Positions 28,982 through 42,750 of a DNA stretch of 64,000 nucleotides are shown here, in pieces. The DNA comes from Ktedonobacteria bacterium (lineage in GTDB: Bacteria; Chloroflexota; Ktedonobacteria; Ktedonobacterales; JACDGC01). Where the stretch lies: assembly GCA_027459785.1 (NCBI GenBank), contig DAIDGU010000013.1, positions 35,711 to 99,710 of the forward strand, read 5' to 3'. The first letter of the stretch is position 1. Every line of letters starts with the position of its first letter. Under the pieces are notes generated by a model, which had not been told where the DNA came from, did not search any database, and saw nothing but the letters and a program-made list of their open reading frames with translations. The position numbers and the translations under genes are program-made.

Positions 28982-30751
28982 ATGTCCCCTGCTCCGACGC
29001 CTACTTTGCTGCTGGCCACGTGCCGCGCCGAACCGTTCAGCCACGATCCGCATGATCACGTGCCGCTGCCGGCGGGAGCCTATCGCTTCCTGGTCGTGAA
29101 GCGACCTCCGCCCGCGCCCTCGGCGACGCCTGCCACGCCGTGGCGCTACCCTGTGGCGGCAATGGGCCGACGGGTCGCGCGGACGGTGGCACCACGCCTT
29201 GCCGCCCGGCGCTGGCACTGCCGCACCTGTGAACATGAGTTCAGCGTTATCGCCGGCGCACCGGACAGCGCGACCGAAGATGTGCGGCCCGGCACGCCCG
29301 CTGCTCGTGCGACCTTCACCGATCTCTGCCCCACCGGCGATGTCATCCTGGTCGTTCACGGCTTCAATTGCACCGAAGAATCCGGCATCGAGACAGCGTT
29401 CAACGTGCATGATGCGCTGGCCGCCTGGGGGTTGCCGCTGGCCCCGCCACCCGGCATGCTTGGCGCGCCCCACGACCATCGGGAGGACGGACATTCTTGT
29501 CTGTCACCTGGCGGGCAGGCATGGCCGCCCCACGAGGAGCAGATACCCCGCTCTGCCAATCCGCAAGTAATCGGTTTCACGTGGCCGTGTGAACACACGC
29601 TTTTCCCCGGCTACATGGCGGATAAAGAGGCGGTGGCGCGTTTCGCTGCGTTTTCGCTGGCGAACCTCATCACCGATCTGCGCGCCCGGCAACCACAGCG
29701 ACGTATCCATATCGTGGCGCACAGCATGGGGTGCTTCCTCACGCTCAAGGCGCTGAATATGCTGGCTGTGCTGCACGGCATCCATGCCCCGGCGGCTACA
29801 CCGCTGGTGGATAGCGTGATCTGGCTGGCGGCGGATATCAATGCCGACGCGCTGGAACGGTCCACGCCGGCGACGCTGCCGCTGCACGCCTGGCGGCATC
29901 CGGCGCATGTGCTGGGGATGGCGCGGCTGCGCGCCATTTTCACGCGCCCCCGCCCCCTCGCAGATCCGCCGCTGGCAGCGGTCCCCACGCATACCGCCTC
30001 GCCTGCATCGTCTGGCACCGCAGCTCCGGTCTATGCGCATCCGCTGGATGGTTACGGCTATGCGGCGTTAGATGTCGTGGGGGATCTCACCATCTATTCG
30101 TCGTTTCGTGATGAGGCATTATGGGCCTCGCCGCTGGCGAACCTGACGACGGAAGAGTCCGGTGGGACGGCATGGAGCATTCGCCTGGGCTGGTGCGGGC
30201 CGCTGCATCCGCGACTGATGATGGTGCCGGACGGGACACGCCCGCGCCGCGTAACGCTGGTAGATTGCACCGATTGCATCACCGAGCATGGCATGTATTT
30301 CTTTGTGCCTGCCGTGCAGCGCGACCTGGCGGCGCGGCTGGACGCCGCGCAACGCCGCCAGCGGGGGACCGCTGCCATGGTGGCCGCGCGTGTGACCGCG
30401 CCTGGTGGGGCGAAAGCGAGCGCATCCCCACGCCGCCCCGGCGTCGCACGCCGTCAACGCGACCGCGCGGTGATCACGCCGCCACCGGAGCGCGTCAGCC
30501 TGACTACCTGGCGCGCGGGGCGACCACTGGCCTTCCCCAGCGCGGGACACGCGTTGCCGGAAGGTCTGACGCTAGCGCAACTCCGCCGTCTGCCGTTGGG
30601 TGCGCAGACGCCACCCCGCACCGCCCGTGGTGCGCCAGCGATTCCGCCGCAGAGCGCGACGGCGTTCTTTGCGGCGCTGTGGCGTTGGCCGCTGACGGCG
30701 GCGCTCCTGGCGGCATGGGTCGGGTTGTGGCGCTGGTACTTCCGGGTTTAA
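28982..30751 (+). CDS. DUF900-type alpha/beta hydrolase
   Basis: A 589-residue protein. VILVVHGFNCTEESG (about residue 120) is the oxyanion strand of DUF900-like hydrolases and RRIHIVAHSMGCFLTLKAL (about 240) is the nucleophile elbow with Ser in AHSMG. A small double-Cys motif (CRTCEHEF) precedes the domain. The C-terminus has a basic Pro-rich stretch and ends in a hydrophobic helix (about 560-580, WPLTAALLAAWVGLWRW), so the enzyme may be tail anchored. Between the two hydrolase motifs, codons of 29481-29537 are a copy of the genomic hairpin repeat, read in frame. Its 3' end overlaps the convergent response regulator gene by 4 bases. Substrate unknown. Confidence 0.75.
   Translation: MSPAPTPTLLLATCRAEPFSHDPHDHVPLPAGAYRFLVVKRPPPAPSATPATPWRYPVAAMGRRVARTVAPRLAARRWHCRTCEHEFSVIAGAPDSATEDVRPGTPAARATFTDLCPTGDVILVVHGFNCTEESGIETAFNVHDALAAWGLPLAPPPGMLGAPHDHREDGHSCLSPGGQAWPPHEEQIPRSANPQVIGFTWPCEHTLFPGYMADKEAVARFAAFSLANLITDLRARQPQRRIHIVAHSMGCFLTLKALNMLAVLHGIHAPAATPLVDSVIWLAADINADALERSTPATLPLHAWRHPAHVLGMARLRAIFTRPRPLADPPLAAVPTHTASPASSGTAAPVYAHPLDGYGYAALDVVGDLTIYSSFRDEALWASPLANLTTEESGGTAWSIRLGWCGPLHPRLMMVPDGTRPRRVTLVDCTDCITEHGMYFFVPAVQRDLAARLDAAQRRQRGTAAMVAARVTAPGGAKASASPRRPGVARRQRDRAVITPPPERVSLTTWRAGRPLAFPSAGHALPEGLTLAQLRRLPLGAQTPPRTARGAPAIPPQSATAFFAALWRWPLTAALLAAWVGLWRWYFRV
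29481..29537. repeat. Hairpin repeat unit inside the hydrolase coding sequence
   Basis: GAGGACGGACATTCTTGTCT with GTCACC and GGCGGGCAGGCATGGCCGCC match the intergenic repeat units elsewhere in the window (for example GGAGGACAGACATTCCTGTC at 3354). It is read through in frame as a segment beginning EDGHSCLSPGGQAWPP. Confidence 0.75.
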
Positions 30752-31236
30752 AAGATCTCGCCGGGCATTTCTTCCAGCAGCACTTGCAGCTTCGCCAGGC
30801 GCTCTTCCGGCGTCACTTGCTGGGCGCGTTCGATGGCCGCCAGCAATTCATGCGCACGGAAAGGTTTGGTCAGATATTCATCCGCTCCGGAAAGTAAGCC
30901 CGTTTGTTTTTCGTTCGGGCGCACCAGCGCGGTGAGCATGATCAGCGCCGTCGCCGCTGTTGTGAGGTCGCCCCGTAGGCAGCGTAGGAACTGGTAGCCG
31001 TCCATGTTCGGCATCTTCGCATCGACGATGACACAGACGGGATGCTCAGCCTCGAAGGCTTCCAAGCCGGCGACGCCGTCATAAGCTACGATGGGTTGAT
31101 ACTTGCCATCGAGCTTGATGATGCGGCGAATGACATCAACGATGGAGGGATTATCATCAATGATCAGGATCTTCGGTTTCTGGGCCTGGGATGTAGCAGG
31201 TGCGTCCAACGTCTGCCCCCTTCCAACTTGGAACAT
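30748..31236 (-). CDS. Single-domain response regulator (CheY-like receiver)
   Basis: A 162-residue protein consisting of a receiver domain with short tails and no output domain. ILIIDDNPSIVDVI carries the acidic pair, VCVIVDAKMPNMDG the phospho-acceptor Asp (about residue 73), MLTAL the Thr switch and YLTKPFRAHELL the conserved Lys. Such proteins relay phosphate or act by protein contact. ATG 31236 is preceded by AGAAGGAC. Its stop overlaps the end of the convergent hydrolase gene. The nearest orphan sensor kinase is the one at 33798, on the other strand with a methyltransferase gene between, so a partnership is possible but unproven. Confidence 0.9.
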   Translation of the reverse strand: MFQVGRGQTLDAPATSQAQKPKILIIDDNPSIVDVIRRIIKLDGKYQPIVAYDGVAGLEAFEAEHPVCVIVDAKMPNMDGYQFLRCLRGDLTTAATALIMLTALVRPNEKQTGLLSGADEYLTKPFRAHELLAAIERAQQVTPEERLAKLQVLLEEMPGEIF

Positions 31237-32233: not shown

Positions 32234-32262
32234 TTGACATATCGCTTAATGCCAGGTACTAT
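32234..32262 (+). promoter_or_regulatory. Consensus promoter of the ComX-like peptide gene
   Basis: TTGACA (32234-32239), exactly 17 bases, TACTAT (32257-32262). Transcription would begin near 32269 and give a leader of about 113 bases that contains no other gene. It is among the best promoter matches in the window. Confidence 0.75.
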
Positions 32263-32381
32263 AGTGACAACAGGAGAAAACGGGTGAGGGATCACTGGCA
32301 CAGACAAGGGAGGGAACCGCAGCGGGCGGACCCCCGATTCGCTTTCATCATGTCGTCATGCCGACGACACGGAGGTTTTCG

Positions 32382-32570
32382 ATGTTTGACAAGTTGACTG
32401 CTATTGTTGAGCGCATCAGCACCGACCTGGGGTTCCGCGATCTGCTTCAGACACAGCCTGACGTGGCGCTGGCCTCCTATCAGCTTTCCCACGAAGAGAA
32501 GGGCGCGCTGAAAGATATGCTGGGCCGCGATCTCAAAGCCGTCCGCCCCAACAGTTTTTGGTGGCAGTAG
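32382..32570 (+). CDS. ComX-like peptide precursor (putative prenylated pheromone)
   Basis: A 62-residue precursor starting at ATG 32382, with CGGAGG at 32370-32375. It has no signal peptide. The leader is helical and acidic: FRDLLQTQPDVALASYQLSH and then EEKGALKDML, followed by a basic break and a short C-terminal core ending NSFWWQ. Trp 60 and Trp 61 lie at positions -3 and -2. ComX precursors (53-73 residues) end with a short core whose Trp near the C-terminus is prenylated by ComQ; the Bacillus RO-E-2 pheromone GIFWEQ has Trp at -3 after Phe, as here. A prenyl-synthetase-like gene and a sensor kinase follow. The leader pattern also resembles other RiPP precursors, so other modification is possible. 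Confidence 0.7.
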   Translation: MFDKLTAIVERISTDLGFRDLLQTQPDVALASYQLSHEEKGALKDMLGRDLKAVRPNSFWWQ

Positions 32571-32582
32571 TTTAAAATCGTA

Positions 32583-32641
32583 CTCTCATCGTGAAAGCAT
32601 TTTATCGCTTGTAACTTCCCTCACGATGAGAGGCTTTTTTT
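32583..32641 (+). terminator. Rho-independent terminator after the peptide gene
   Basis: CTCTCATCGTGA (32583-32594) pairs perfectly with TCACGATGAGAG (32621-32632) around a 26-base loop, followed by GC and a run of T to 32641. It lies 13 bases after the peptide stop and before the ComQ-like gene, so the peptide is mainly made from its own short transcript, with read-through possible. Confidence 0.85.
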
Positions 32642-32754
32642 TGTGGGTAAGATTATTATCATCTGATGACGATATGCTGATAGCTCGTCAAAATTAAATG
32701 GCAAAACGATGAAAGGGACATGCAGCATAACTCAGCACTGGGAAGGTGTTTCCT

Positions 32755-33777
32755 ATGTCTTTTTCAGCCCTTGTTAACCACGAGCTTTCCTGGCCATTCC
32801 CTGAAACCGATGCCGAAGCGATCGAAGCGCGATTACGACAGGTTGTGCAATACTTGGTATCGTTCATGAACCAGTGGGGCGCCCCTCGCAGCCTCCGCGC
32901 AATCATTGATGAAGCACTTCGTCAGCCAGGCAAGCTCCTTGTAGCTCCCATCTATGATGGCAAACACCTGCAACGGCAAGACGGTGGCCTATGGCCGCTG
33001 CATGCTGTGCTGATGCATGCGGCAGTCGCGCACATGGACACAGCGGCAGCGGTGGCGGCGGATTGGGAGACGGTGGTGCCGGTGGCGGCGGCAGTTGAAT
33101 TGCTGGGCGCGGCGCTGGATGTTTTTGACGATGTGCAGGACGGTGACGGCGACCTCAATGCCCGCTTTGGGGTGCCGATGATGATCAATGCGGCGATGGC
33201 GTTGCGCGAACTGGCACAGCAGGCACTGGCTGACCCGCGCATTCCCCGTGCGTTGCAAACAGTCTTGCAAGAAACCTGCGCATCTGATACACTGCGTGCT
33301 ATCGGCGGTCAAACGCTGGATGTCGCCTTCGAGCAACAGGCGCACGTGACACTTGACGAAGCCATCGACATGACCGAGCGCAAATCGGGCGCGCTCGTGG
33401 GCCTGGTTTATCGCCTGGGTGCGCTGGTGGGCCTCTATGGGCGCTATCGCGCGAAGCGTTTGCGTGCTGCCAGTGAAGACTTCGCCGCCTTTGGGCGCAC
33501 GATGGGCGTGGTCATTCAGCTTGAAAATGACTGGAATGACGCCCGCCGCGATGCGCCCAAAAGCGACCGCCAGCGCGGCAAAAAGACGTTGCCGCTGGTG
33601 GCCGAGGCGGAGAAAATGCCACCGGGGCTAACCGCTGAAGAAGGCGAATTGTTCGTTTTGCGTATGGTGCAGACGATGATCAGCCTCCATCGCCGCCGCG
33701 CCCGCGCGCAACTCGACGCGCTCGTTGCCACGTATCATTTTTCACCGCGTTGGCTATATTGGGTAGTCAGCGATTGA
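32755..33777 (+). CDS. Polyprenyl-synthetase-like protein (ComQ-like)
   Basis: A 340-residue all-alpha protein of the isoprenyl diphosphate synthase family. The first Asp-rich motif is DDVQD (125-129) within LDVFDDVQDGDGD; the second is NDWND (258-262), and GKKTLPLV (from 275) is the following loop. MTERKSGALVGLVYRLGA holds the conserved Lys of the middle region. Typical synthases make C10-C20 diphosphates; ComQ of Bacillus belongs to the same fold and attaches a prenyl group to Trp of ComX. Location between the peptide gene and a sensor kinase gene favours a ComQ role. ATG 32755 has GGGAAGG at 32740-32746. The kinase gene follows by 20 bases, so they share a transcript. An ordinary lipid role remains possible. 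Confidence 0.8.
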   Translation: MSFSALVNHELSWPFPETDAEAIEARLRQVVQYLVSFMNQWGAPRSLRAIIDEALRQPGKLLVAPIYDGKHLQRQDGGLWPLHAVLMHAAVAHMDTAAAVAADWETVVPVAAAVELLGAALDVFDDVQDGDGDLNARFGVPMMINAAMALRELAQQALADPRIPRALQTVLQETCASDTLRAIGGQTLDVAFEQQAHVTLDEAIDMTERKSGALVGLVYRLGALVGLYGRYRAKRLRAASEDFAAFGRTMGVVIQLENDWNDARRDAPKSDRQRGKKTLPLVAEAEKMPPGLTAEEGELFVLRMVQTMISLHRRRARAQLDALVATYHFSPRWLYWVVSD

Positions 33778-33797
33778 TGTGAATGGAGTCATTCGCT

Positions 33798-36479
33798 ATG
33801 GATAAACGTACTGGACAAACTCATCCACGATTGGCGCGCTCGTCGCGCGCGCTTCGTTGGCCACGCCTGATCGCGGCTGCTTCGGTAGGCATCTTGTGCT
33901 CCGTAGCGATCATCACAGGTATCATCCAATATGCGACCAGCACACCCGATTGGGGCATGACGCTCGATGCCAGTGGCCCGCAATCAACGTGCTATCCCGT
34001 CATTTGCACCACCTATGCCTGGCGCGTCGCCAGGGTGGATGTCGGCGGTTTGGCCTTCAACAATGGCATCAACGTCGGTACGGTCATCTGCGGCTATAGC
34101 GATTCCCAGATAACGCCAGGCAACGTGACGAGCATGACGAATGCCGCCAGCGTCATCATGGCGCAGCAACTTGTCATCCTCCAATCAGGCAATAAGAGCA
34201 ATGCTTGTCATCTGCCCTCGCTCACATCAACTGTTTCAGCCGGACAGGTGACGCTGCTTTCCGCGCTCGGCGATCTGTTGATCGAATTGATTAGCGCATC
34301 TCTAGCGATTTTGATCGTGCTGCACGGCACGCAACGCAACCTCGTCTGGCACACCGCCGCCTTTTTGGTAAGCATGGTGCTAACTTTTGGCACGCTGCCT
34401 CTGGTGACAAATAGCCCTGTATTAGAGATTGCCGCAGAAGTGATTGCCTCTCTCGTCACGCCAACACTTCTTGCCACCCTTCTCTGGCGCTTGCTGTTGT
34501 CAGCACCAACCCGTCCACTTGGCACGCAAGGACGTGCCATACTCTTTGCCCTGCTTTTTATCCTTAATGCCGCTTTAGCTGCCGGCCTGTTATTTGCAGT
34601 TGCCTTCCAACACGCCAACATTTATAATTTCCTCGTAAAAGTTGATCCCTTGCTCGTTGTCGTGAATGTTCTCATTACCTTGGGTACGGTTATCGGGATC
34701 GGCTTATTCAGCCGCGATGCTGTGCGGCGTGATAACGCACGCATTTTAGGCATCGGCACGCTGATCGCCTTGCTGCCTGTGCTCGTGTTCGCGGTGCTAC
34801 CGGCCATCATCCCGAATTTCCATCCGCTCATCGACTCGACGGCGGTGGCGACGAGCTTGGGTGTGTTCCCCCTGGCGCTGGCGTATGTCGTGCTGCGGCG
34901 CGACCTGCTGCATACGGACGTGCTGGTGCGCCGGACTGCTGTGCAGGCGATCTGGCTGATCTTCCTGGCCTTCACCAGCGCACTGTTGCTGACAGTGCTG
35001 GCGGGTGTGCTCAATATTTCCGCGCAGGATGCCGCGCTGCTTTTCGCCGGCTTGATCGTGCTGGGCCTGGTCGCGCCGTTGCTGAATAACAGCGCACGCT
35101 GGATCACCGAGGCCGGTATCTTCCCCGAAGTGCAACGCTATCGCCGCTTGCTGCGCCGCGCGCGCGTCGGTGGCCAGACGGAGGAGCGCGAGATCGCAGA
35201 CGCGCTGATCGGTGAAGTCACCATCGCCTTGCCGATTCGTAGCGCAACCTTGCTGGTGCGCCACGACGAGGTCGGTCTCTATGAAGTTGTCGGCGGGCTG
35301 GCGATTCCCCCGGTGACGGTGGATCATCCCATCCTCGCCGCCTTCACGAGCCGCCCGCTGGCCGTCGTGCGTGAGGATCTCGCCCCCTATGGCCCACTGC
35401 CTTTTGAGCCACCGCCAAGCTCTTTCTGGGAATGCTTCGTGCCGATTGTGTTGGAAAATAGGTTGGTGGGTCTGTTGTTGTTGGGACCACGCGACGACGA
35501 CATCGGCTATTCCACCACCGACCGCACGCAGCTCTTCCGTCTGGCGAACCAACGCGCGGTGGCGCTGGACTACCTGCGCGTCCTTTCGGCGCTGCGCGCT
35601 GCATTGGAAGAGCAGAAGCGCATCGACGCGCTGAAAGACCAGTTCATCATGACGGCGCACCATGAACTGCGCACGCCCCTGACAAGCATGATGGGCTATA
35701 TCGACATCGTAGCGCGCATGGGCGTCACTTCCTGGCAGCAAGATCCTGATGATGTGGAATTGATGGTGAGCGAGGCACTGCGGTCCGGCGAGGATTTGGT
35801 GCATCTGCTGGATACCTTGTTGGCGGCGGATCGCGCCAGCGTGCGTTCGCCCGTTCTGCACCCGGCCTACATCGCGCTCGGCGAGACATTGCGCCGCCTG
35901 GCGACGGATGCCATGATGGCCGGCGCGGAGCAAGCCGCGCGCATCAGCATCACCTGCCCGCCGGAACTGGTGGCCTATGCCGACCGCGACGCCTTCGGCC
36001 AGATCATCACCAATCTGTTGTCGAACGCGGCCAAGTATTCGCCGGAACACGCGCCCATCGAGGTCACGGTCTGGCGCAAAGAGGACGCGCCGCTGGTCGA
36101 GATCACCGTGCGCGACTATGGCGACGGTGTGCCGCTTGACCAACAGAGCGCGATCTTCGAGAAGTTCATCCGCCTGGAACGCGACTTGAACAGCACGATT
36201 CGCGGGACGGGCCTGGGCTTGGCGATTGTGCGCGACCGTGTGCAGGCGATGGGCGGCAATGTGTGGGTCGAAAGTACCGGCATCCCCGGCGAAGGCGCAA
36301 CATTCCATGTGACGCTGCCCAGCAGTGCCGCCGATGTCGCGCTCCCCGATGCCCCCACCGATCCGGCGCTTCCCGTCGCGGTCGCGGCAACGCCCGCCCA
36401 GCGCGATCTCAGCGCCGAACTCACCGATACGCTGCCCCGCCATAAGCTCGTTCGCTACGGACCGCCCGCCGAAGGGTGA
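33798..36479 (+). CDS. Multi-pass membrane sensor histidine kinase (ComP-like position)
   Basis: An 893-residue kinase. After TM1 (about residues 20-42) come about 105 extracytoplasmic residues with four Cys; RVDVGGLAFNNGINVGTVI (about 80-98) resembles a PDZ-type motif, as in the extracellular region of ComP. Eight to nine further membrane helices run to about 430, including YVVLRRDLLHTDVLVRRT, a motif common to ComP-like 7TM sensors. A GAF-like domain (about 455-590) leads to HisKA with HHELRTPL (His 622), the N box (NLLSNAAKYS), G1 (DYGDGVP) and G2 (GTGLGLAIV, about 803). Bacillus ComP instead uses HisKA_3. ATG 33798 is chosen because TGGAG lies 9 bases upstream. No response regulator adjoins. 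Confidence 0.9.
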   Translation: MDKRTGQTHPRLARSSRALRWPRLIAAASVGILCSVAIITGIIQYATSTPDWGMTLDASGPQSTCYPVICTTYAWRVARVDVGGLAFNNGINVGTVICGYSDSQITPGNVTSMTNAASVIMAQQLVILQSGNKSNACHLPSLTSTVSAGQVTLLSALGDLLIELISASLAILIVLHGTQRNLVWHTAAFLVSMVLTFGTLPLVTNSPVLEIAAEVIASLVTPTLLATLLWRLLLSAPTRPLGTQGRAILFALLFILNAALAAGLLFAVAFQHANIYNFLVKVDPLLVVVNVLITLGTVIGIGLFSRDAVRRDNARILGIGTLIALLPVLVFAVLPAIIPNFHPLIDSTAVATSLGVFPLALAYVVLRRDLLHTDVLVRRTAVQAIWLIFLAFTSALLLTVLAGVLNISAQDAALLFAGLIVLGLVAPLLNNSARWITEAGIFPEVQRYRRLLRRARVGGQTEEREIADALIGEVTIALPIRSATLLVRHDEVGLYEVVGGLAIPPVTVDHPILAAFTSRPLAVVREDLAPYGPLPFEPPPSSFWECFVPIVLENRLVGLLLLGPRDDDIGYSTTDRTQLFRLANQRAVALDYLRVLSALRAALEEQKRIDALKDQFIMTAHHELRTPLTSMMGYIDIVARMGVTSWQQDPDDVELMVSEALRSGEDLVHLLDTLLAADRASVRSPVLHPAYIALGETLRRLATDAMMAGAEQAARISITCPPELVAYADRDAFGQIITNLLSNAAKYSPEHAPIEVTVWRKEDAPLVEITVRDYGDGVPLDQQSAIFEKFIRLERDLNSTIRGTGLGLAIVRDRVQAMGGNVWVESTGIPGEGATFHVTLPSSAADVALPDAPTDPALPVAVAATPAQRDLSAELTDTLPRHKLVRYGPPAEG

Positions 36480-39429: not shown

Positions 39430-40242
39430 TCAATGCACGATCATCGCTTCGTCGATGCCGGGCAGGAGGGTGGCACCGATGAGCGGGGCGTCCGCGCTCA
39501 GCGCGGCGGGGACGAGCGCCAGCGGCAGGTTGCGCAGCCGTGCCGCCACGTGCGCCCGCACGCGGTCCAGCAGCTCGCCCCGGTGGAGCGCGATGCCCCC
39601 GCCGACGGCGACGACTTCCACGCGCGTCAGTTGCGCCAGGTTGACCAGCCCCAGCGCCAGTTTTTCCGCCACGGCTTCCCAGAAGGCGGGATCGCTGATC
39701 GCTTCCGGTGCGCGTTTCGCGCGGATCTCGATCTGGCGTCCGCCGGTGTAGGTTTCCAGGCAGCCGACCTGGCCGCACAAACAGATCCGCGCGTTGCCGT
39801 CCAAAATTTGGTGGCCGAACTCGATGGAGACGAGCCGGTCGCGCAGCAGCACTGCCGCGCCCGTGCCGGTGGAAACGGTGAGGTAGGCGCAGCGCGCTTG
39901 CCCCCGCAGCGCACCCTGCCGCCATTCCGCCAGCAGCCCACAGACCGTGTCGTGCGCCAGCCGCACCGGTGCGCCCGCGATCCGCGCCAGGTCGTCGCGC
40001 AGCGCCCGCCCCTGGTAGTCCCGCAGATTCGGCGCTTCGGCCACCCCGCCGCCATCCGCCCGCACCCGCGCCCCCACGCTCACGCCGACGGCCTCCCGCG
40101 CCGGCCCGCCCACCAGCGCCCCCGCGATGGATCGCAGTTCGCCGGCATAGTCGGGATCGGTGGGGAAGCTTTGTCCCAGCAGCCGCGTGGTCGTCCCCCC
40201 GATGTCGATGCCGATGACGCCCCGCGCCCTATCCTCGCTCAC
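39430..40242 (-). CDS. ROK-family sugar kinase
   Basis: A 270-residue ROK (repressor, ORF, kinase) protein without an HTH, so likely a glucokinase-like enzyme. GVIGIDIGGTTTRLLG is the ATP phosphate-1 motif; LTVSTGTGAAVLL follows; GHQILDG and CLCGQVGCLETYTGG supply the zinc-site His and the three Cys, with the catalytic acidic region at LAHDT. The start is GTG 40242, whose bases overlap the TGA of the upstream STAND gene (GTGA), so it is coupled to that gene. Why a sugar kinase is coupled to a signalling ATPase is unclear. Confidence 0.85.
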   Translation of the reverse strand: MSEDRARGVIGIDIGGTTTRLLGQSFPTDPDYAGELRSIAGALVGGPAREAVGVSVGARVRADGGGVAEAPNLRDYQGRALRDDLARIAGAPVRLAHDTVCGLLAEWRQGALRGQARCAYLTVSTGTGAAVLLRDRLVSIEFGHQILDGNARICLCGQVGCLETYTGGRQIEIRAKRAPEAISDPAFWEAVAEKLALGLVNLAQLTRVEVVAVGGGIALHRGELLDRVRAHVAARLRNLPLALVPAALSADAPLIGATLLPGIDEAMIVH

Positions 40243-42563
40243 GCCCCGCACCCCAACTCGCGGATCAGGTCGCGCGCATCCTGCGCCTGGGGCATGCCCA
40301 TCTGGGTGAAGAGCCGTTCGGCTTCGTGCAGCATCGCGCATCCCTCCGCCTGATTCCCTCGCTTCGTGATGAGCAGTTGCCCCAGAATTAGCGATCCCAT
40401 CGCTACATTCTGCATATCCGGAATAGCGCGCAAAACCGCGATAGCTTGGCGATAACTCGCCTCCGCCTGCTCAGCGTGTCCCTGGCCCTCAGCAACTTGA
40501 CCAAGTTTGAACAGCGCCACGCCCTCTTCGCGCTGGTCGCCGACCTGGTGCATGATCTGCTGAGTCTGCTGGTACGCCGCCTCGGTCCCCGCCACGTCGC
40601 CGCGTTGCAGCAGGATGTCCCCTAGATCGCTGAGGGCGATGGCGGCACTACGCTCTTCGCCGATCTCCTGAAAGATGGTGCGGCTGCGGGTGAAAGCGCG
40701 CTCTGCGGCGTCGGTCTGGCCGGTGGTGTTGAGGACGGCGCCATAAGCGCGTTCCAAGCTGGCGAGATTGCTTTTGTCGGCGCGGTCGCTGGTCTGGTTG
40801 GCAATGGTTTCCGCCGCCGCGATGCCCCAGGGCAGGTAGCGCCGGCTGAGCGGTGTGCGCGAGCGGTCGCGCCAGTAATTGCGCATGCCCATGCAGAGGC
40901 CCACCACCAGCGCGGCGGCAGCGTGGTCGTGCGCCCATTCGATGGCGGCAGAAATGTTCGCCTCATCGGCGGCGAGCGTTGGATAGGCTTCCCCGTTTTC
41001 GTTCGCGTAGTCGGCGTAGAAGGCGGCGCTGGCGCGGCGGGCGGCGTCCTGGTCGGTGGCGGGCCAGGCGGCGAGTTTGGTGGCGGCGAAGGCGCGCAGC
41101 AGGGGATGCAGGCGCACGCGCATGCGGTCGGCGTCTTCGGGCAAGGTCAGGGCAGGTTCGACGGTGAGCATGGCGCGGCGGGCCAGCAGGGCCAGCGCGT
41201 CGTCGGCCTCGGTCGCGCTCAGGCCGCTGCCCGCGCCCACGGCCAGCGCGGCGCGGCGGCCCATTTCGCCCGTGCCAAAGGCGGCCAGCGCGACGAAAAG
41301 GCGCTGCGCGGCGGGCGTCAGCGCGTCATAGCTGCCGGCGAAGACGGGGGCCAGGTCGCGCTGCGGATCGTCGCCGTGGATCGCCAGCGCCAGGGCGGGC
41401 TGGGCCGCTAACTCCGCCGCCAGGCCGGCCAGGTCGCCGGCGCGCGTATCGGCGGCGCGGCCCGCCACGAGCTGGATCGCCAGGGTGTGATAGCCCAGCG
41501 CGGCCACGATGCGCGCGGCGTTCCGGTCGAAATCCGGCGGGCGCGATGCGAAGGGCTGGGCGAAAAGGGCCACGGCCTGGTCGGGCGGCAATACGTCCAG
41601 CGTCAGGCCGGCAGTGGGCGGCACGACCGAGGATGGCAAATCCTGGCGGGCGGTCAGCAAGAGCGCGGCTCCGGCCTCGTGCAGCGGCGCGACGAGGTGG
41701 CGCAGCGCCTCCGGCGGCAGGTCCGGCTCGATGTTATCCAGCATGATCAGGGCATGCTTGCCACCCAAGAGGCGATGCGCGGCGTCGCCCAGGCCGTTCC
41801 AGTCGGTGGCATCCGGCGGGCGGCGGTGCGGATCGAAGCGCGTCAGGGTGTCGCGCAGCACGTTCAGCGCATCATCCGCCGTCCGTTTGTCGTTGCACGC
41901 CATGAAGACGATCCCGTCGGGGAAGGCGTGTGCGTCGCGCAGTTCGCGCGCCACCTGCGCCGCCAGCGTCGTCTTGCCGATGCCGCCCACGCCGCGCACA
42001 GCGGTGATGCCCGCCACCTGCCCGCCCGCGAGGGTATTCTTGATCGCCGCGATCTCGTCCGCGCGCCCGACGAACTGGGGCGCGGTGGGCAGCGCATCGA
42101 AGGGCGGGCCGACATCCGGCACCACGGGGCCGGCGATCTCGCGGAACTGCGCTTCCAGCGTATCTACCCGTGTGACCACGGGGCCGACGACACCTTGCGC
42201 GGCCACCTGCGCCGTCGCCGCCATCTTTTCCGCCTGCCGGCTCTCTTCTTCTTGCGCCAGCCAGCGATCATAGATCGGCCCGGCGATCCCCAGGCCGACC
42301 AGCGCCGCCAGCAACGGCCAGAAGACGAGCGGCTGCTGCCGCGCCAATTGCACGATATAGACCTGCTGAAGCTGATCCCACGTGGGCAGCGCCGCCTGGC
42401 CCGACGCGACAATCGACTGGATGAAGCCAGCGACGATATTCAACCCCAGGAAGCTATAGACCACCAGATAGGCGCGATGGACGACGCGATGCCAGCGCCC
42501 GATGCGCCGACGCGGCGCGGCGACGGCAGGCGGGGCATCCACAACGGCGACGGGGGACGGCAT
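40239..42563 (-). CDS. Membrane-anchored NB-ARC STAND ATPase with TPR repeats
   Basis: A 774-residue protein. Two membrane helices lie near the N-terminus (about 31-52 and 79-98), followed by a coiled stretch and an NB-ARC nucleotide-binding domain: FVGRADEIAAIKNTL, P-loop GVGGIGKTTL (191-200), Walker B ALIMLDNIE (271-279) and the sensor LLLTARQDLP. A winged-helix-like region follows, then TPR repeats from about 600 to the end (AERAFTRSRTIFQEIGEERS, AEASYRQAIAVLRAI). STAND proteins are signal-driven switches in regulation and defence. ATG 42563 has GGAGGTG 6 bases upstream, so the longer open frame, which crosses a repeat, is rejected. It overlaps the ROK gene start. Confidence 0.88.
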   Translation of the reverse strand: MPSPVAVVDAPPAVAAPRRRIGRWHRVVHRAYLVVYSFLGLNIVAGFIQSIVASGQAALPTWDQLQQVYIVQLARQQPLVFWPLLAALVGLGIAGPIYDRWLAQEEESRQAEKMAATAQVAAQGVVGPVVTRVDTLEAQFREIAGPVVPDVGPPFDALPTAPQFVGRADEIAAIKNTLAGGQVAGITAVRGVGGIGKTTLAAQVARELRDAHAFPDGIVFMACNDKRTADDALNVLRDTLTRFDPHRRPPDATDWNGLGDAAHRLLGGKHALIMLDNIEPDLPPEALRHLVAPLHEAGAALLLTARQDLPSSVVPPTAGLTLDVLPPDQAVALFAQPFASRPPDFDRNAARIVAALGYHTLAIQLVAGRAADTRAGDLAGLAAELAAQPALALAIHGDDPQRDLAPVFAGSYDALTPAAQRLFVALAAFGTGEMGRRAALAVGAGSGLSATEADDALALLARRAMLTVEPALTLPEDADRMRVRLHPLLRAFAATKLAAWPATDQDAARRASAAFYADYANENGEAYPTLAADEANISAAIEWAHDHAAAALVVGLCMGMRNYWRDRSRTPLSRRYLPWGIAAAETIANQTSDRADKSNLASLERAYGAVLNTTGQTDAAERAFTRSRTIFQEIGEERSAAIALSDLGDILLQRGDVAGTEAAYQQTQQIMHQVGDQREEGVALFKLGQVAEGQGHAEQAEASYRQAIAVLRAIPDMQNVAMGSLILGQLLITKRGNQAEGCAMLHEAERLFTQMGMPQAQDARDLIRELGCGA

Positions 42564-42657
42564 GAGCGGCACCTCCAATACGAGCGCAAAAAACGACGAT
42601 ACCGATGAACAACGCTTCTCACAATTGCGCACAGTATAGCACACGGGCGAAAGGACG

Positions 42658-42750
42658 GGAACACGGAAGACACGGAGGATACGGAAGACACGGAGAAGGA
42701 CGGGAACACGAAGGCCACGAAAATCCACGAAGGCCACGAAGAAAGACGCA
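42658..42750. repeat. CACGAA/CACGGA repeat cluster
   Basis: GAACACGGAAGACACGGAGG units followed by GAACACGAAGGCCACGAAAA units, upstream of the STAND gene. Same family as 7601, 15150 and 52927; here no inverse arm is present. Confidence 0.65.

What the first reader, a model, noticed from the sequence alone, without database searches (positions are those of the whole stretch)
32234..36479. Candidate ComQXP-like prenylated-peptide signalling locus outside the Firmicutes
Seen: a 62-residue peptide ending FWWQ, then a prenyl-synthetase-like gene with DDVQD and NDWND motifs, then 20 bases later a multi-pass membrane histidine kinase with an extracytoplasmic region. Known: ComQXPA of Bacillus consists of an isoprenyl transferase (ComQ), a peptide prenylated on a C-terminal Trp (ComX), a multi-pass kinase with an extracellular domain (ComP) and a regulator (ComA). 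Inference: the locus is a quorum-sensing system of this type in an organism that looks like Chloroflexota. Gene order (X-Q-P), HisKA type and the missing ComA differ, so it may be an independent or divergent version.
Basis: partly seen in the sequence, partly recalled or inferred. Interest (0 to 1): 0.95.

Follow-up and report, generated by a model that had tools for sequence, protein, structure and literature searches.

The report
Prenylated-peptide signalling cassette in Chloroflexota
A bacterium, likely of the phylum Chloroflexota, carries three neighbouring genes that are predicted to make a lipid-tagged signal peptide and the membrane sensor that would detect it, a kind of chemical communication known from Bacillus and relatives; similar gene sets recur in related genomes, and in some of them the sensor is joined to enzyme domains predicted to control the second messenger c-di-GMP.

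Summary
The window encodes X (32382-32570, 62 aa, ending NSFWWQ), Q (32755-33777, isoprenoid-synthase family) and P (33798-36479, membrane histidine kinase) on one strand. X has no match to the ComX family; its leader resembles the NHLP/Os1348 RiPP leaders (below curated cut-offs). The closest described system is therefore PalX-PalQ-PalP of Paenibacillus alvei, with ComQXPA next. Q leaves the ordinary prenyl synthases: it lacks their arginine pair after the first Asp motif and has Asn for the first Asp of the second motif, as three of four fetched ComQ do. A tree separates 25 Q/ComQ-like rows from 8 ordinary synthases at 99/98. The X-Q-P order recurs in many genomes of the phylum; most X homologues carry Trp within their last five residues. 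Ten of 22 P scanned have a Pfam PDZ domain, as one of two ComP has; the window's P has none by Pfam. Output domains vary: HisKA, HisKA_3 with a LuxR-type regulator, hybrid kinase, HD-GYP, or HD-GYP plus GGDEF. Prenylation, export and sensing are inferred. I call it a new variant of a known kind and found no report of it in Chloroflexota in the open-access library.

The parts
32234..32262 (+). sigma-70-like promoter (TTGACA, 17 nt, TACTAT) before X; predicted
   Evidence: 10 of 12 consensus bases; 4 such sites found in the region scanned, 1.9 expected by chance
32382..32570 (+). X: 62-aa precursor peptide, NHLP/Os1348-type leader, Trp60-Trp61 at the tail (NSFWWQ)
   Evidence: NF038399 E 5e-7 and TIGR04509 E 8e-5, PF14407 E 1e-4, all below the curated cut-offs; homologues P0039-P0042
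32583..32642 (+). hairpin with a 12-bp exact stem followed by eight T, between X and Q; predicted terminator or attenuator
   Evidence: (z -3.18); the scan did not list it (its loop is too long for that scan); a hairpin without a clear T run is visible in the printed G001 sequence
32755..33777 (+). Q: isoprenoid-synthase-fold enzyme, predicted Trp prenyltransferase
   Evidence: PF00348; motifs; tree; AlphaFold model pLDDT 89 and PDB matches
33798..36479 (+). P: multi-pass membrane histidine kinase with a PDZ-like outer region, GAF-like region, HisKA and HATPase_c; predicted receptor (first ATG in frame at 33783)

Best explanation
X, Q and P form a three-gene cassette, found again in related genomes, that likely works as a prenylated-peptide signalling system: Q is predicted to put a prenyl chain on a tryptophan at the tail of X, the tail would then be cut off and released, and the kinase P would sense it outside the cell. 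Shown by sequence: the gene order and its conservation, the conserved leader with a variable Trp-containing tail, the loss in Q of the arginine pair of ordinary synthases, and the domain order of P. Inferred: that the substrate of Q is X, that Trp60 or Trp61 is the acceptor, the chain length, the proteolysis and export by unknown host proteins, and that P binds the mature tail through its PDZ-like loop or membrane helices and phosphorylates a regulator not encoded beside it. A single receiver-domain protein lies 1.1 kb upstream on the other strand. By analogy with PalX the leader would help Q to bind X. A terminator-like hairpin after X would make more X than Q and P.
For: Order X-Q-P conserved: an HMM of 6 peptides (5 from the window's clade plus G001) found the peptide upstream of Q in 16 loci outside its training set (E 2e-9 to 0.016), and 16 of 16 have Trp in the last five residues; several are from the same genus. 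A P-like gene starts within about 160 nt after Q in 25 of 25 X-bearing loci that I opened wide and whose contig goes on. In a wider count an X-HMM hit lay upstream of 26 of 39 distinct prenyltransferase-type Q with at least 700 nt held, against 0 of 32 ordinary synthases and 0 of 13 unclassed ones (partly circular, caveats in the full report). Motifs: arginine pair after the first Asp motif in 8 of 8 ordinary synthases and 0 of 25 Q/ComQ-like rows; second motif begins with Asn in 23 of 25 and with Asp in 8 of 8 ordinary ones. Tree branch 99/98. Leader identity 84% against 27% in the last 12 residues; P outer loop 30% against kinase 59%. PDZ domains by Pfam in 10 of 22 Chloroflexota P scanned and in one of two ComP. 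PalXQP chemistry from PMC10853753.
Against: No prenylation, peptide or response was measured. NHLP leaders occur in RiPP precursors generally (recalled), and the parts of the PalX paper that I read show no signalling role. The one NHLP exporter family searched has no match over its cut-off in the genome, and no response regulator is in the operon. The window's P has no Pfam PDZ hit, and the direct profile comparison with ComP failed (0.4%). The f4 kinases looked at have no PDZ-like region. The X-HMM missed 13 of 39 Q-type loci; for two opened wide (G140, G259) and four with short flanks I found no X at all. The structure model of P is poor (pLDDT 61).
Confidence: 0.75

Rival explanations
1. 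X is the precursor of a prenylated antimicrobial or otherwise secreted RiPP, and P merely regulates its production or senses envelope stress.
For: The leader belongs with RiPP-precursor leaders; the P. alvei cluster was found as a RiPP cluster by antiSMASH (PMC10853753).
Against: No immunity gene or ABC exporter among the 8 neighbours scanned (an EamA-type transporter lies 1.9 kb downstream), and the one NHLP exporter family searched is not over its cut-off in the genome. Sensors with quite different outputs, including HD-GYP and GGDEF, stand in the same place after Q, as expected for a receptor of the product.
Confidence: 0.13
2. Q prenylates X, but the lipidated peptide stays in the cell or membrane and P senses something else.
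For: P was not shown to bind X; the window's P has an outer loop with several Cys and no Pfam PDZ hit.
Against: A P-like gene follows Q in 25 of 25 X-bearing loci opened wide whose contig goes on; the tail of X and the outer part of P are both the variable parts.
Confidence: 0.07
3. Q is an ordinary short-chain prenyl diphosphate synthase that lies beside X and P by accident.
Against: Tree branch 99/98 and loss of the arginine pair; the genome already has two ordinary synthases; X is found beside 26 of 39 Q-type and 0 of 32 ordinary enzymes.
Confidence: 0.03

Closest known systems
PalX-PalQ-PalP of Paenibacillus alvei (PMC10853753; first two of four parts and passages read)
   Same: Three genes: NHLP-type precursor with a Trp at the tail, trans-IDS-like Trp prenyltransferase, histidine kinase.
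   Different: PalX ends in Trp and PalQ works best with it there, while Trp here is second and third from the end (one relative, G530, does end in GGW). PalQ keeps Asp at both ends of the second motif (D200, D204); here the first is Asn. Sequences of PalQ and PalP could not be fetched, so homology was not measured.
ComQXPA of Bacillus (census PMC4008528: none outside Firmicutes; passages and one section read)
   Same: Trans-IDS-like enzyme without the arginine pair, a short peptide with a Trp near its end, a kinase with TM1, outer domain and many helices. Real loci were fetched as controls; two of these four (L082, L084) show the complete Q-X-P-A set, L080 has its kinase annotated in two pieces, and L081 shows Q and X only.
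   Different: Order Q-X-P-A there and X-Q-P here; X not matched by the ComX family; HisKA here, HisKA_3 in one of two ComP scanned; no ComA gene here.
NHLP-clan / Os1348-family RiPP precursors (NF038399, TIGR04509, PF14407)
   Same: Leader match in X and relatives.
   Different: Scores of the window's X lie under the curated cut-offs (29.7 of 40; 22.6 of 34; 23 of 48); of 10 relatives scanned one, G510, passes (45.6 of 40).
Ord1, a free-Trp farnesyltransferase (PDB 9v4h; function from PMC13290415)
   Same: Same fold; Gln three residues before the second motif (inferred from the mutant names).
   Different: Acts on free Trp; no peptide or kinase gene known to me.

Membership tests
ComQXPA | ComX-family precursor (PF05952) | tested here: not met
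   No PF05952 match in X at E up to 1. The genome-wide search gave only weak hits elsewhere; the model also missed its cut-off in the B. subtilis control, so the model itself is weak.
ComQXPA | ComQ-type enzyme: Asp motif 1 kept, arginine pair lost, motif 2 altered | tested here: met
   tree branch that holds Q and 4 fetched ComQ, 99/98
ComQXPA | ComP: PDZ-like outer domain and many TM helices | tested here: inconclusive
   Topology fits. The window's clade matches PDZ-bearing relatives at 97.5%, these match ComP at 96.8%, but ComP against the window's clade directly is 0.4%.
ComQXPA | HisKA_3 kinase with an adjacent ComA | tested here: not met
   HisKA in P; no regulator gene follows P. Relatives G196, G420 and G119 have a HisKA_3 match (only G119 over the cut-off) and a LuxR-type regulator.
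PalXQP | NHLP-type leader | tested here: met
   NF038399 E 5e-7, below the cut-off; 7 of 10 relatives at E 1.3e-7 or better, 3 of 10 weak (0.007 to 0.06)
PalXQP | acceptor Trp is the last residue | tested here: not met
   Window tail FWWQ; in the window's clade Trp is second from the end in 5 of 5
PalXQP | Q homologous to PalQ more than to ComQ | not tested
PalXQP | in vitro prenylation of the Trp | not testable with these tools
   needs enzymology
ordinary trans-prenyl diphosphate synthases | arginine pair after motif 1 and Asp at the start of motif 2 | tested here: not met
   8 of 8 ordinary rows have both, Q has neither

The most novel reading that the evidence does not exclude
Chloroflexota use a phylum-wide prenyl-peptide quorum-sensing system in which one receptor body (TM1, PDZ-like outer domain, membrane helices) is joined to interchangeable outputs: transcription through HisKA or HisKA_3 kinases with regulators, hybrid phosphorelay, or direct c-di-GMP control through HD-GYP and GGDEF domains. 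ComQXPA of Bacillus and PalXQP of Paenibacillus would be two branches of it. A prenylated peptide that directly gates a c-di-GMP enzyme has, to my knowledge, not been described.
Probability: 0.5. Interest if true: 0.9.

Novelty: new variant of a known kind. Interest (0 to 1): 0.8.

Why it matters
Peptide quorum sensing by Trp prenylation has been described in Bacillus relatives, and the 2014 census found it nowhere outside Firmicutes (PMC4008528). A conserved cassette in several Chloroflexota groups would give these poorly understood bacteria a testable cell-cell signal, a new source of peptide prenyltransferases acting near, not at, the last residue, and a natural series of receptors in which one input domain drives a kinase, a hybrid kinase or c-di-GMP enzymes. 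It also makes the origin of ComQXPA testable.

Tried and rejected
ComX family: PF05952 gave no match to X and no useful one in the genome or 20 relatives; it did not reach its cut-off even in the B. subtilis control. Structure as a discriminator: the Q model is good, but Foldseek and VIA-align list ordinary synthases first and Ord1 close behind, so fold does not tell the acceptor. The P model is too poor for a fold search, so I ran none. Own-genome search with one NHLP exporter family gave only matches under its cut-off. Plasmid search with Q gave one partial match, annotated polyprenyl synthetase. A generic terminator scan did not list the hairpin after X; folding found it. Common origin of Chloroflexota Q and ComQ: the tree does not settle it. 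Idea that X-Q-P loci generally have a terminator after X: rejected, 1 of 23 loci has a long stem with a T run. The Gln before the second motif as a mark of Trp enzymes: it is also in the ordinary rows.

Literature on Chloroflexota: searches listed no report of such a locus. The library is open access only, lists were capped, and I could not read supplementary files.
Full report
What is there. On the + strand the window holds X (32382-32570), Q (32755-33777) and P (33798-36479, or from 33783), with ordinary-looking genes on both sides: a methyltransferase on the other strand upstream and a SnoaL-like gene, aminotransferase, EamA transporter, ROK protein and NB-ARC/TPR protein downstream. A consensus-like promoter lies before X and a 12-bp exact hairpin with eight T lies between X and Q.

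Where it comes from. The genome G000 has 4.84 Mb in 88 contigs. It lies in a class of 47 genomes, one of which has 13.7 Mb. Ktedonobacter racemifer has 13.66 Mb and two Thermogemmatispora strains 5.56 and 5.61 Mb (PMC6497799, passages), which fit members of this class.

X. NCBIfam finds an Os1348-family NHLP leader (E 5e-7) and an NHLP-related RiPP leader (E 8e-5), Pfam the Frankia peptide family (E 1e-4), all below the curated cut-offs. The protein search, which reaches only relatives sharing short words, found four homologues, 71-79% identical. Over the window and these four, residues 1-47 are 84% identical on average and the last 12 are 27%; the ends are WWQ, WWQ, FWA, WWA, WWS, so Trp is second from the end in 5 of 5.

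Q. It is an isoprenoid-synthase-fold protein (model pLDDT 89). In an alignment of 33 rows the arginine pair (RR or RH) after the first Asp motif is in 8 of 8 ordinary synthases and in 0 of the other 25 (20 Q, four ComQ, one Acaryochloris protein); the second motif starts with Asp in 8 of 8 ordinary ones and with Asn in 23 of the 25, the exceptions being B. velezensis ComQ (Gly) and Acaryochloris (Asp). The pair binds the IPP diphosphate in ordinary enzymes (recalled), so its loss fits a non-IPP acceptor. The review PMC13290415 (section 2.4) says that the second motif is repurposed for Trp in such enzymes and that a Gln just before it is shared; Q has this Gln (Q255), but so do the ordinary rows, so the Gln does not discriminate. 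In the tree a branch with 99/98 support separates the 8 ordinary rows, two of them from G000 itself, from the 25. ComQ are one clade (100/100); the relation of Chloroflexota Q to ComQ is unresolved. Four rows have long branches (L083, L086, L080, L061) and seven an odd letter make-up, the four ComQ among them.

P. TM1, an outer region of about 105 residues, many helices, a GAF-like region, HisKA and HATPase_c. Within the window's clade the outer loop is 30% identical and the kinase 59%, the pattern expected of a receptor that follows a changing ligand, though drift of an unconstrained loop would look alike. Relatives from other families show a PDZ-like region at this place. Of 22 Chloroflexota P proteins scanned (window; 8; 10; 3 new ones, the last at a stricter limit), 10 have a Pfam PDZ hit with E up to 0.01 and 12, the window's among them, have none; of two ComP controls one has. 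Profile comparison joins the window's clade to the PDZ-bearing ones (97.5%, E 7e-12) and these to ComP (96.8%, E 3e-10), but not window to ComP directly (0.4%). TM segments may inflate the first two values.

Conservation of the cassette. Searches covered the class (47 genomes), 400 genomes of the phylum and the classes of G349 (158), G284 (294, drawn from more) and G196 (29); the sets overlap. I did not open every match: only top ones were fetched wide, and the lower ones that I looked at were mostly ordinary synthases. An HMM trained on the five window-clade peptides and G001 found the peptide upstream of Q in 16 loci outside its training: G349, G284, G020, G021, G019, G467, G510, G672, G530, G713, G266, G347, G278, G082, G231 (contig 245) and G531 (E 2e-9 to 0.016); all 16 have Trp within the last five residues. 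They are not 16 independent cases: G020/G021, G349/G467 and G266/G278/G082 share a genus. The same HMM gave weak hits (E 0.16 to 0.99) to a Trp-tailed peptide in G037-G040 and G042, not counted. In a systematic count with an HMM of 15 X, hence partly circular, 26 of 39 distinct prenyltransferase-type Q with at least 700 nt upstream have an X hit with E under 0.01; six of the 26 share the tail MWWWHP (one genus). One of the 26 (L145) has no Trp tail and no visible second motif and is probably false. Ordinary synthases: 0 of 32; unclassed ones with Asp: 0 of 13. Of the 13 misses, G022, G027 and G420 have Trp-tailed frames with other leaders; G196, G224 and G119 have small frames with Trp about 11 residues from the end, and G231 contig 42 has one between Q and P, all read by eye; for G140, G259 and four loci with short flanks I found none. 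Three further Q rows lacked 700 nt upstream and are not in the 39; one of them (G672) has X. A P-like gene starts within about 160 nt after Q in 25 of 25 X-bearing loci opened wide whose contig goes on; not each of these was scanned with Pfam.

Outputs. Among the 22 P scanned: HisKA kinase in 9 (window, L018, G001, G019, G020, G038, G510, G672, G231), hybrid HisKA plus receiver in 3 (G713, G266, G082), HisKA_3 in 3 (G196, G420, G119; only G119 is over the cut-off), HATPase only in 1 (G224), HD-GYP in 3 (G284, G218, G530), HD-GYP plus GGDEF in 2 (G349, G467) and only GAF in 1 (G022). The five HD-GYP sequences keep HHExx(D/N)GxGYP and the two GGDEF ones GGDEF; the upstream HD(I/L)GK pattern was found in four of five, not in G530. 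G196, G420 and G119 have a LuxR-type regulator right after P, so ComQXPA-like four-gene sets exist in this phylum (X of G196 and G119 by eye); G224 shows a receiver-like frame after P, read by eye.

Mechanism. The best reading is PalXQP-like chemistry (NHLP leader, trans-IDS-like Q, Trp near the tail; PMC10853753) coupled to ComP-like sensing. PalQ lost activity when residues were added after its Trp (PMC13290415), so the window's Q, if it uses Trp60 or Trp61 before the final Gln, would differ in acceptor position. Shown: sequence, order, motifs, tree, conservation. Inferred: acceptor, chain, cleavage, export, sensing, partner regulator.

Novelty. The 2014 census found comQXPA-like loci in no phylum but Firmicutes (PMC4008528). 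[quoted passage not shown] 'Chloroflex' occurs 0 times in the main texts of PMC10853753 and PMC13290415. My searches listed no paper on this cassette in Chloroflexota.

Noticed in passing
30748-31236 (-): Single receiver-domain protein (E 4e-22) 1.1 kb before X on the other strand; possible partner of P. Receiver-only genes also lie near X-Q-P in G672 and G530.
   Followed up: partly
L066:4537-6948 (G196): Receiver-GGDEF-EAL gene directly upstream of the X-Q-P-regulator set, another link to c-di-GMP.
   Followed up: no
L085 and hits H2, H3: Two plasmids labelled Stenotrophomonas rhizophila hold a stretch 31.8% identical to ComQ, an unexpected host; the records may be mislabelled (not tested).
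   Followed up: no
L082 (Anoxybacillus amylolyticus plasmid): Complete comQXPA-like set beside a thiopeptide-type biosynthesis gene and skfA/skfB.
   Followed up: no
L083:4333-5280 (Acaryochloris plasmid): Divergent Q-like protein without the arginine pair but with Asp in motif 2; long branch; no peptide or sensor annotated beside it.
   Followed up: no
L160, L163 (G140, G259): Q-type enzymes with a DDLxDGE motif and no X found nearby; perhaps another substrate.
   Followed up: partly
40239-42737 (-): NB-ARC/AAA plus TPR protein (STAND type).
   Followed up: no
   Followed up: no
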